NCBI GenBank assembly: GCA_017468055.1
Contig: JAFUJU010000025.1
Coordinates: 1 to 64,000 of the forward strand
From: Elusimicrobiaceae bacterium
GTDB lineage: Bacteria; Elusimicrobiota; Elusimicrobia; Elusimicrobiales; Elusimicrobiaceae
Direction of reading: 5' to 3'
DNA length: 64,000 nucleotides
Part shown: positions 59,051 to 63,708 of the stretch, in pieces
How the letters are laid out: each line of letters begins with the position of its first letter
How positions within the stretch are numbered: the stretch's first letter is position 1
Program-made: the position numbers and the translations under genes
The notes under the pieces: model-generated
The model's input: only the letters and a program-made list of their open reading frames with translations
What the model was told of the DNA's origin: nothing
The model's database searches: none

Positions 59051-59539
59051 TCACTTAAAGGTATAATCCGTATAACCCGTTCCGGAGGAGTCTAACACAC
59101 CCCCATAGGTAAGACAAAACTTTTTCCCTTCATCGCTAATGGCTCTGCATTTGGGTTGGTAGCTGTCTCTGGGAACATATATAACAATTTGAGCCCCTAT
59201 CTCTGGAAGAAGAACACAGAGAAATTCTTTGGTTCCATTATTAAACCTGCATGAATATTTTTCGTTTCCAATACTATCTTTATTTTCTGATATTTCCCCA
59301 GCAGGCAAAACATCCAACACATCCAACGTGGTGGCATATTCGCCATTAGCCATATAATAACGCTTCTGGGCATCATATAAAGTGCGAGTGGCCAGTTGCA
59401 ACTGTACAAAACGGCTTTTTTGCACACTTTTTGTATATTGCGGCAAAGCCACTGCTGACAAAATACCAATAATCAGTACCACAACCAACAATTCAATCAA
59501 CGTAAAACCGCCAAGATTACGGCCAGAATCCTTTTTCAT
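59051..59539 (-). CDS. Type IV pilin-like protein (long leader)
   Basis: 162 residues. Longer leader (MKKDSGRNLGG), [37 protein letters not shown]-terminal pattern KCRAISDEGKKFCLTYGG, like the short-leader pilins at 3.6, 13.5, 37 and 52 kb, but with the long-leader 5' cassette. AAGGAG-type site before the ATG. Confidence 0.9.
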   Translation of the reverse strand: MKKDSGRNLGGFTLIELLVVVLIIGILSAVALPQYTKSVQKSRFVQLQLATRTLYDAQKRYYMANGEYATTLDVLDVLPAGEISENKDSIGNEKYSCRFNNGTKEFLCVLLPEIGAQIVIYVPRDSYQPKCRAISDEGKKFCLTYGGVLDSSGTGYTDYTFK

Positions 59540-60143: not shown

Positions 60144-61832
60144 ATGGATAAAGAACAAGGCATCACCGTTGCCAAATCTGCTGGCTTTTGTCCGGGCGTA
60201 AAAGGTGCTATAGATAAAGTGCTGGAGCTGGAAGCTTCCGGCAAAAAACCGATCTATACCCTAGGCCCGCTTATTCACAATAAACAAGTGACCGACATGT
60301 TGGCCGCCAAACAAATTTCTTCCGTAGATAAACCGGACCAAGCACAGGATAAGTCCGGCGTGCTTGTTATTCGTGCCCACGGCATTACCCCCGCTTTCCG
60401 CGCAGAAGTAATGCAAAGCGGCATGGAAGTAGTGGATGCTACTTGCCCGCTGGTCAAACACGCACATGACGTTATTTCAAAATATGCCAAGGAAGGTTAT
60501 TACACCGTCATTGTGGGGGACGGCGGCCATGCGGAGGTCATCGGATTATTGGGATGTACCGAGGGAAAAGGCGTGGTGATCTCCGGCCCGCAAGAAGCCG
60601 AAAAATTACCACATTTTGATAAAGTAAATGTCGTTTCTCAGACTACCCAAAAAGAAAGTGTGTTTTTGGCCACGGCAGAAATTATTAAAAACAAGGCAGA
60701 CATCTGCCAAATATCCAATACTATTTGCCACCCTACAAAGTTGCGCCAAAGCGAAACCATGCAGATGGCCAAAAATGCGGATTTAGTCATTGTAGTGGGC
60801 GGCAAGCACAGTGCCAATACGGCGCGTTTGGCTTTGTTGTGCAGTGAGCTGGCACCGCGGGTACTGCATATTGAGACGGAGGCTGAACTAACCCCCGACC
60901 AAGTATTAAATGCACAAAATATTTTCATCACAGCAGGGGCATCCACTCCAAACTGGGTAATCAACCAAGTGGCCGAATGGGTACGCCAAACCCGTAAAAA
61001 ACGGGGCCGTTCTTTAAGTGGAATTTTGCAGCGTTTTTGGACTAAATTTGTCTCCCATTCCGTTTATACCGCTTTTGCCGCAGCGGCACTGACGTATGTT
61101 TGTATGAAACTGGAAGGATTGCACTTCCAATACAAACCGATTCTTTTTTCTTTCTTCTTTGTTTTTAGCCTAACCACGGTCAACCGCGCTATGGAGGACA
61201 AAACCAGACCGGCAGGTAAACTGCCCGCTATTTTTGGTTATACTGCCGCCGGACTGGGGCTATTGGTAGCGGCCTTAATGGGCGTGAAAACGTTGGTTTT
61301 ATGTGCTTTAATTATTGGGTTAGGTTTGTTGTATCCGTTCCGTCATATATTAAAGTCCAAGTTGCTTTCCCTGCCGGGGACAAAAGATTTCTTAACGGCT
61401 ATCGGCTGGGGCTATGCCTGTGCCTTTTTGCCGGCGTTCTCCAATGATTTGTTGTTAAGAAGATCCTCTTATTTAGCTTTCTTTTATGCTGTTCTTTTGG
61501 TATTTATGCGCTCGGTTACCTTGGGCTTTACTTCCGCCAATAAAGACTTGATGATCGGTAAGGAAAGCTTTTACAAAGCATTCGGCATCGGCAAAACTAA
61601 ACTGGCCGTTATGGGTATGTTGGCCGCTTTAACGGCGGTGCTGGCGGTGTTGCTCACCATTACATGGCGGCCTGCCTTGGTAGCGATGTTGCTCATCGGA
61701 AACTTGTACACCATTTTTGTAGTAATATACTATTATAGTCATTCCGCTTCGCGCGGCATTAAAGAAGAAACTTTAATTGATGCACAGTTTTTTGTGCTTT
61801 GGATTTTGGCGTGGCTTTCACGCTTTATCTAA
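60144..61832 (+). CDS. ispH: IspH fused to a UbiA-like membrane domain
   Basis: 562 residues. Residues 1-282 are complete IspH: cluster cysteines Cys16 (GFCPGVKGA), Cys101 (DATCPLVKHAH) and Cys195 (SNTICHPTKLRQSE), substrate residues in LIHNK and GGHAEVIG. IspH makes IPP and DMAPP in the MEP pathway. Residues about 300-562 form seven to nine membrane helices; NRAMEDKTRPAGKLPAIFGY and LLYPFRHILKSKLL resemble UbiA prenyltransferases, but the Asp-rich motif is incomplete. TATAAT ends six bases before the ATG (leaderless). Confidence 0.88.
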   Translation: MDKEQGITVAKSAGFCPGVKGAIDKVLELEASGKKPIYTLGPLIHNKQVTDMLAAKQISSVDKPDQAQDKSGVLVIRAHGITPAFRAEVMQSGMEVVDATCPLVKHAHDVISKYAKEGYYTVIVGDGGHAEVIGLLGCTEGKGVVISGPQEAEKLPHFDKVNVVSQTTQKESVFLATAEIIKNKADICQISNTICHPTKLRQSETMQMAKNADLVIVVGGKHSANTARLALLCSELAPRVLHIETEAELTPDQVLNAQNIFITAGASTPNWVINQVAEWVRQTRKKRGRSLSGILQRFWTKFVSHSVYTAFAAAALTYVCMKLEGLHFQYKPILFSFFFVFSLTTVNRAMEDKTRPAGKLPAIFGYTAAGLGLLVAALMGVKTLVLCALIIGLGLLYPFRHILKSKLLSLPGTKDFLTAIGWGYACAFLPAFSNDLLLRRSSYLAFFYAVLLVFMRSVTLGFTSANKDLMIGKESFYKAFGIGKTKLAVMGMLAALTAVLAVLLTITWRPALVAMLLIGNLYTIFVVIYYYSHSASRGIKEETLIDAQFFVLWILAWLSRFI

Positions 61833-61844
61833 GGGAGAGAAAAT

Positions 61845-62945
61845 ATGGCCATTCGGAAAATTGGTATTTTAACGGCCGGCGGAGATTGCCCCGGCTTGAA
61901 CGCAGTCGTACGTGCCGTGAGCAAAAACGCTTTACGCCAAGGGGTAGAGGTAATTGGGTTTAAAAATGGATTTGACGGGGTCGTGCGCAATGAATTTATC
62001 AAAATTACCGCTGAAACCGTATCCGGCATTTTAACTTTGGGCGGTACTATTTTAGGTACCAGCAATATTGCGAATCCCTTTAAATACACCTTACCCCCCT
62101 TCGGCACGCCGGAAAATCCGTGTGATTTGTCTGCGGTGGCTTTGCACAATTTCCATGCCAATCAATTAGATGCCTTGATTACTATCGGCGGAGATGGCAC
62201 CTTAACCATGTCTCAAAAATTTGTAGATTTAGGTATGCCGATTGTGGCAGTACCCAAAACTATTGATAACGACCTTTCCGCCACGGACCAAACTTTCGGT
62301 TTTGATTCCGCCTTAAACGTAGCTACAGAAGCCATTGACCGCATTCATACCACGGCCCAAAGTCATCACCGTGTGATGATTATTGAAACCATGGGCCGCT
62401 ATGCCGGTTGGATTGCTTTACGTTCTGCCATTGCCGGCGGCGGGGACATCGTGTTAATTCCGGAAATTCCGTACAATGATGATGTGATCGTAGAGTATTT
62501 ATCCAAACGCAGAAGCCAAGGAAAAAATTTCAGCATCGTCGTAGCAGCAGAAGGAGCCAAAAACGAACAAGGCGAACAAGCCATCACCCGTACCGTGGCA
62601 GCCAGCACGGACCCAATCCGCTTGGGCGGCATTGCTTATAAACTCAGCGACATGATTGAAAAACGCGCCAACATTGAGTCCCGCGCCTGTGTGCTGGGCC
62701 ACATGCAACGTGGCGGCACACCGACGGCCTTTGACCGTTGGCTTTCCACCCTCTACGGGGCCAAGGCATTTGACATGGTCATGGAAGGAAAATTCGGCTA
62801 TATGGCTGCTTTCCGCAATTTTGGTATTACGGAAGTAAAAATTGCCGATGCGATCAGCAAACTTAAATTAGTAGATCCCACCGGAGAAGAGGTCCGTTCC
62901 GCCTTGGAAGTAGGCATGAGTTTCGGTTCGGCCCAAATCGGCTAA
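61845..62945 (+). CDS. pfkA: 6-phosphofructokinase
   Basis: 366 residues. GILTAGGDCPGLNAVVRAV, GGDGT at residues 115-119, PKTIDNDLSATDQTFGFD, MGRYAGWIAL and HMQRGGTPTAFDR. The Gly after GGD (where PPi-dependent enzymes have Asp) suggests ATP as donor, whereas Lys138 in PKTIDND is the residue seen in PPi and mixed types. Phosphorylates fructose-6-phosphate in glycolysis. AAGGGAGAG site; 12 bases after ispH. Confidence 0.92.
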   Translation: MAIRKIGILTAGGDCPGLNAVVRAVSKNALRQGVEVIGFKNGFDGVVRNEFIKITAETVSGILTLGGTILGTSNIANPFKYTLPPFGTPENPCDLSAVALHNFHANQLDALITIGGDGTLTMSQKFVDLGMPIVAVPKTIDNDLSATDQTFGFDSALNVATEAIDRIHTTAQSHHRVMIIETMGRYAGWIALRSAIAGGGDIVLIPEIPYNDDVIVEYLSKRRSQGKNFSIVVAAEGAKNEQGEQAITRTVAASTDPIRLGGIAYKLSDMIEKRANIESRACVLGHMQRGGTPTAFDRWLSTLYGAKAFDMVMEGKFGYMAAFRNFGITEVKIADAISKLKLVDPTGEEVRSALEVGMSFGSAQIG

Positions 62946-62958
62946 GAAGGAGAAAAAA

Positions 62959-63708
62959 ATGAGCGAAAATTTGGATATTCTTTACGGCATTCATGCCGTT
63001 ATGGAAGCATTGAAAAGTAAAAAAAGAAATGTGGTACAGTTGTACGTGGCTGACAATAAGGCCGGTCACCGCGCCGTAGAAGAAATTATCCGTTTGGCCA
63101 AACGCAACAATGTAAAAATTGACCGCATGGATTTAAAAGTCATGGAACGCTTGACCAAAGGGGCCAATCACCAAGGGGTCATGGCCAAAGCCCAACCTGT
63201 ACGCTTGATGAAGCTTTCCACCGCTATGTACGAAGCGGACGGAAACAAGAAAGATTTGTGGTTGGCCGTAGATGAAATGACTGACCCGCAAAACTTGGGC
63301 GCCATTATCCGTAGTGCGGCCTGTTTGGGGTTTTCTACCATTATTTTGCCGCAACGCAGAACGGTAGGGCTGACTCCTGCCGTCTATAAAGTAGCTTGCG
63401 GAGCGGTGGAAAGTGTGAATATTGTAGAAGTGGCCAACTTATCTAACGCACTTTTAGATTTAAAAGAAGAAGGTTTCTGGATTTACGGGGCGGATATGGA
63501 CGGCCAATCTATTGCGGAAACGGATTATGCCTCTCCGGCGGTGCTTGTCATCGGATCGGAAGGAACGGGTATCCGTGAAAAAACGGCTGAAAACTGCGAC
63601 CAAATTATTTCTATCCCGCAAAAAGGCGGTGTGGAAAGTTTGAACGCATCTGCCGCCGCCAGCATTATCATGTATGATATGATGGCTAAAGTACAGCTGA
63701 AAAAATAA
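62959..63708 (+). CDS. rlmB: 23S rRNA 2'-O-methyltransferase, TrmH family
   Basis: 249 residues. N-terminal RNA-binding region (LYGIHAVMEALKSKKR; KGANHQGVMAK) and SPOUT domain with DPQNLGAIIRSAACLG, VIGSEGTGIREK and IPQKGGVESLNASAAASI. Fits RlmB, which methylates G2251 of 23S rRNA. Follows pfkA by 13 bases with AAGGAG. Confidence 0.9.
   Translation: MSENLDILYGIHAVMEALKSKKRNVVQLYVADNKAGHRAVEEIIRLAKRNNVKIDRMDLKVMERLTKGANHQGVMAKAQPVRLMKLSTAMYEADGNKKDLWLAVDEMTDPQNLGAIIRSAACLGFSTIILPQRRTVGLTPAVYKVACGAVESVNIVEVANLSNALLDLKEEGFWIYGADMDGQSIAETDYASPAVLVIGSEGTGIREKTAENCDQIISIPQKGGVESLNASAAASIIMYDMMAKVQLKK

What the first reader, a model, noticed from the sequence alone, without database searches (positions are those of the whole stretch)
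60144..61832. IspH joined to a UbiA-like membrane domain
A complete IspH is followed by about 260 residues of membrane helices resembling UbiA prenyltransferases but with incomplete Asp motifs. The fusion would couple IPP/DMAPP supply to a membrane prenyl-transfer or carrier step.
Basis: partly seen in the sequence, partly recalled or inferred. Interest (0 to 1): 0.6.

Follow-up and report, generated by a model that had tools for sequence, protein, structure and literature searches.

The report
IspH fused to an altered UbiA domain
A gut bacterium of the phylum Elusimicrobiota makes its last isoprenoid-precursor enzyme (IspH) joined to a UbiA-type membrane domain whose catalytic aspartates are mostly gone; such fusions were already described in sulfate-reducing bacteria, so the new points are this lineage's altered active site and the repeated clean loss of the domain.

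Summary
Real and conserved, but not a new architecture. Window 60144-61832 (+) encodes one 562-residue protein: a complete IspH (LYTB, 1e-83) and, from about residue 298, nine helices with the UbiA fold (predicted model, Z 19 to ApUbiA 4OD5/4OD4). The fusion is intact in many independent Elusimicrobiota assemblies; the domain occurs in 93 of 341 genomes of the phylum and is under purifying selection (dN/dS about 0.09). IspH-UbiA fusions were reported in 2015 (PMC4746011: 47 sequences, mainly Desulfobacterales, two DXXXD motifs kept, function unknown). Here both motifs are eroded in all 23 diverse members: the first keeps only its Asn, the second only its last Asp. A distinct conserved set (N347, K414-D415, R456, D468, E474, Y477-K478, E542, D546) remains. 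Fused IspHs form one clade; the domain was cleanly removed at least three times while IspH stayed intact. The genome has no other UbiA protein, and polyprenyl synthases are present with or without the domain. The domain is therefore a dispensable accessory, unlikely to be an ordinary Mg2+-dependent prenyltransferase. Best guess: a ligand-binding pseudoenzyme that holds IspH at the membrane. No function is shown. Descent from the Desulfobacterales fusions could not be tested.

The parts
60144..61832 (+). IspH-UbiA-like fusion gene, 562 aa
60144..61001 (+). IspH domain, residues 1-286; C16, C101, C195 (4Fe-4S ligands), H45, H129, E131, T167/T168, S223, N225, S267 conserved
   Evidence: LYTB 7-280, 1e-83; conservation; (IspH structures, Z 29-30)
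61002..61037 (+). short variable linker, residues 287-298; stand-alone IspHs of relatives stop here
61038..61829 (+). UbiA-fold membrane domain, residues 299-562, nine long helices
   Evidence: models; Z 19.1-19.2 to 4OD5/4OD4, 245 aligned, rmsd 3.1-3.2
61182..61208 (+). remnant of first Asp motif (NDxxDxxxD): N347 invariant; canonical Asp positions are R348, E351, R355
61383..61409 (+). conserved K414-D415...G421-W422 block before helix 5
61509..61586 (+). remnant of second Asp motif (DxxDxxGD...G): R456, G461, S464, D468, G472, E474, Y477, K478, G481; only the last Asp kept
61845..62945 (+). pfkA-type phosphofructokinase (name from sequence), 12 bases downstream; follows ispH whether or not the UbiA-like domain is present
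62959..63708 (+). RlmB-type rRNA methyltransferase (name from sequence), next in the conserved gene order

Best explanation
A working IspH is tethered to the membrane by a UbiA-superfamily domain that has lost the usual pair of Mg2+-binding Asp motifs. I think the domain still binds a phosphate-bearing isoprenoid through its conserved Asn/Lys/Arg/Asp/Glu set, and so holds IspH at the membrane where IPP/DMAPP are consumed or sensed (scaffold, channelling or feedback), rather than catalysing ordinary aromatic prenyl transfer. Shown: the fusion, UbiA fold (predicted model), motif loss, purifying selection, single origin of the fused clade within the sequences sampled, repeated clean loss. Inferred: membrane tethering, ligand binding, channelling or feedback.
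For: UbiA fold. Asp positions replaced in 23 of 23 diverse members (348: R/K/H; 351: E15/S5/Q2/G1; 461: G/S; 464: mostly S/A/Q/H), while N347, R456 and D468 are invariant and K414, D415, E474, Y477, K478, E542, D546 are at 91% or more. Purifying selection: median dN/dS 0.091 against 0.052 for IspH. IspH catalytic residues conserved. No other UbiA protein in the genome. Polyprenyl synthase and UppS present with and without the domain.
Against: An invariant cluster in the former active site could equally mark a changed catalytic activity. No ligand, localisation or activity data. No conserved neighbour gene hints at function. pLDDT is low (under 50) just at the second motif loop.
Confidence: 0.42

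Rival explanations
1. The domain is an active but retooled intramembrane transferase or isoprenoid-modifying enzyme with altered metal or phosphate binding, fed directly by IspH (the Rosetta-stone view of Rao et al. 2015).
For: Invariant charged residues sit at the former second Asp motif and before helix 5; the 2015 authors favour prenyl transfer for the Asp-bearing fusions; the fold also resembles the membrane PRTase 8J8J (Z 13, no better than unrelated rows).
Against: Asp motifs missing in all members examined; the domain is lost repeatedly while IspH and polyprenyl synthases stay.
Confidence: 0.27
2. Passive membrane anchor: a degenerating UbiA kept only to place IspH at the membrane, for example near an electron donor.
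For: Motif erosion, further erosion in genus g3 (L126, L127), three or more clean losses.
Against: Charged residues inside the helical bundle are invariant and dN/dS is about 0.09; a convincing RnfC was not found in the genus, so that membrane donor is unlikely.
Confidence: 0.18
3. The domain moves isoprenyl (di)phosphates within or across the membrane (carrier or flippase).
For: A large intramembrane cavity is usual for this fold (general knowledge); conserved basic residues.
Against: No convincing transporter family match.
Confidence: 0.06
4. Assembly or annotation artefact (chimeric contig or read-through of two genes).
For: The genome is a fragmented assembly in 89 contigs.
Against: Same open frame in many independent assemblies, including a 1.64 Mb single contig.
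Confidence: 0.01

Closest known systems
IspH-UbiA 'Rosetta stone' fusions of Desulfobacterales (Rao et al. 2015, PMC4746011)
   Same: UbiA-like domain fused to the C-terminus of IspH; anaerobes; function unknown.
   Different: There the two DXXXD motifs are reported as present; here both are eroded. Elusimicrobiota are not mentioned in that text. Whether the two sets share one fusion event was not testable.
UbiA superfamily intramembrane prenyltransferases (PF01040; ApUbiA 4OD5, AfUbiA 4TQ3)
   Same: Fold, nine helices, position of Asn and last Asp.
   Different: Metal-binding Asp pairs lost; Pfam score below the cut-off.
IspH-RPS1 fusions of Clostridia and Fusobacteria
   Same: C-terminal extension on IspH; deleting it did not affect IspH activity there (PMC4746011).
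   Different: Partner is ribosomal protein S1, not a membrane domain.
Decaprenyl-phosphate phosphoribosyltransferase-type membrane PRTase (8J8J/8J8K)
   Same: UbiA-like membrane fold (Z about 13).
   Different: Score no better than unrelated helical isoprenoid synthases; no membership claim.

Membership tests
IspH (LytB) | Full LYTB domain above cut-off | tested here: met
   PF02401 281 bits against 24.5; TIGR00216 258.5 against 187.85
IspH (LytB) | Three cluster cysteines and substrate residues | tested here: met
   C16, C101, C195, H45, H129, E131 conserved
IspH (LytB) | HMBPP reductase activity | not testable with these tools
   needs an assay; IspG present in the genome
UbiA superfamily (fold) | Nine-helix UbiA fold | tested here: met
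   Z 19.1-19.2, 245 aligned, rmsd 3.1-3.2 to 4OD5/4OD4, above unrelated rows at about 14; predicted model
UbiA superfamily (sequence) | PF01040 above gathering score | tested here: not met
   17-19 bits against 34.2; 13 of 23 relatives match at E up to 0.1, best 1.1e-6
UbiA prenyltransferase (enzyme) | First Asp motif NDxxDxxxD | tested here: not met
   Only Asn kept in 23 of 23; first Asp position R/K/H, second E/S/Q/G
UbiA prenyltransferase (enzyme) | Second Asp motif DxxDxxGD | tested here: not met
   Only the last Asp kept in 23 of 23
IspH-UbiA fusion type (Rao 2015) | UbiA-like domain at the C-terminus of IspH | tested here: met
IspH-UbiA fusion type (Rao 2015) | Two DXXXD motifs in the UbiA part | tested here: not met
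   against the description
IspH-UbiA fusion type (Rao 2015) | Common descent with the Desulfobacterales fusions | not testable with these tools
   no Desulfobacterota sequence was reachable; plasmid and viral searches gave none

The most novel reading that the evidence does not exclude
The domain is a UbiA-fold protein with a new, Asp-motif-independent active site that uses IspH's IPP/DMAPP (or a downstream polyprenyl phosphate) to make an unrecognised membrane isoprenoid in gut Elusimicrobiota that have no other UbiA enzyme.
Probability: 0.15. Interest if true: 0.65.

Novelty: new variant of a known kind. Interest (0 to 1): 0.33.

Why it matters
It extends a described but unexplained fusion to another phylum, in bacteria whose genome has no other UbiA protein, with the active site altered yet conserved. 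Near-identical gene neighbourhoods with and without the domain give a natural experiment for what the fused UbiA domain adds to IspH.

Tried and rejected
Frameshift or chimera: rejected. Other membrane family for the C-terminus: no convincing Pfam or NCBIfam competitor; sequence searches of the PDB gave nothing useful. Neighbourhood clues: only pfkA-rlmB order in the family, no shared neighbours in other families. Link to polyprenyl synthase or UppS: none. Rnf docking: only sub-cut-off or partial matches. Profile alignment to canonical UbiAs of the phylum failed because too few suitable templates were caught; the register of the second motif therefore rests on an ungapped hand comparison with two UbiA proteins of L185. 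Canonical UbiA proteins sampled in the phylum are not fused to IspH. Relatives on plasmids: IspH alone, no fusion. Viral contigs: none. The first tree labelled L126 and L133 as unfused; both are fused (L126 by its 549-aa frame, L133 split at a contig end), corrected.

Full report
Observation. The stretch 60144-61832 (+) encodes 562 residues without a stop. Residues 7-280 match LYTB at 1e-83; residues 363-535 match UbiA at 0.0036, below Pfam's cut-off. With the C-terminal part alone the match is 0.00086. The IspH cluster cysteines and substrate residues are conserved.

Not an artefact. The whole frame is found at 64-89% identity in many assemblies of the same genus and at 38-49% in the sister family; the C-terminal domain is detected in 93 of 341 genomes of the phylum, 17 of 100 genera. 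One carrier is a single contig of 1,643,562 bases, the size I recall for Elusimicrobium minutum Pei191 (memory, not checked). Named relatives are Elusimicrobiaceae from animal guts, among them Candidatus Avelusimicrobium.

Fold. AlphaFold2 models (pLDDT 84.3 for the full length, 81.7 for the domain) place nine long helices after the IspH domain. The domain matches ApUbiA (4OD5, 4OD4) at Z 19, 245 residues, rmsd 3.1-3.2, well above soluble isoprenoid synthases at about 14. Thirteen of 23 diverse members match PF01040 weakly, best 1.1e-6; several match NCBIfam prenyltransferase models weakly.

Altered active site. Over 23 diverse members (counted), the first Asp motif keeps only N347; its Asp positions hold R/K/H and E/S/Q/G. 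The second motif, compared by hand without gaps to two canonical UbiA proteins of the phylum, keeps only its last Asp (D468) and most glycines. Other conserved polar residues are K414, D415, R456, E474, Y477, K478, E542 and D546. The most divergent genus (L126, L127) has lost part of this set as well.

Selection and history. Median dN/dS in the genus is 0.091 for the domain and 0.052 for IspH; dS is near saturation, so the values are rough. Fused IspHs and the derived stand-alone ones form one clade (100/99), away from the IspHs of the rest of the phylum; one genome (G185) holds both kinds. Stand-alone IspHs arise at least three times inside the fused clade. In the genus the gene order ispH-pfkA-rlmB is unchanged and the domain is simply missing, with IspH ending near residue 290. 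The domain is not found elsewhere in those genomes, so it was lost, not split off.

Function. The window's genome has no other UbiA protein, at 86.6% completeness, and has IspG. Polyprenyl synthase and UppS are present in lineages with and without the domain, so the domain is not needed for the undecaprenyl route. Taken together: a dispensable, selected, membrane-embedded accessory of IspH with a changed ligand site. Pseudoenzyme tether or retooled transferase cannot be told apart here.

Known background. Rao et al. 2015 (PMC4746011) reported 47 IspH-UbiA proteins, mainly in Desulfobacterales, with both DXXXD motifs, proposed membrane localisation of IspH and coupling to prenyl transfer, and could not express a full-length active protein. 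A search for the term IspH-UbiA found only one other paper. The present case is a variant of that kind.

Noticed in passing
window 59051-59539 (-): Type IV pilin-like gene with a prepilin N-terminus ([25 protein letters not shown]); similar pilin-like genes lie near the fusion in many relatives.
   Followed up: partly
L117 and L204 (genome G185): One class-level relative carries both a stand-alone IspH of its own lineage and the fused IspH-UbiA-like gene, which suggests transfer of the fusion between families of the phylum.
   Followed up: partly
L126 and L127 (genus g3): Fused UbiA-like domain with further erosion: the GKE..YK..G part of the second motif is largely lost, while N, R, D and GW stay.
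   Followed up: partly
L124, L125, L126, L127: In some f2 genomes the fusion follows a gene of about 400 aa that looks by eye like a 2-amino-3-ketobutyrate CoA ligase / oxononanoate synthase relative.
   Followed up: no
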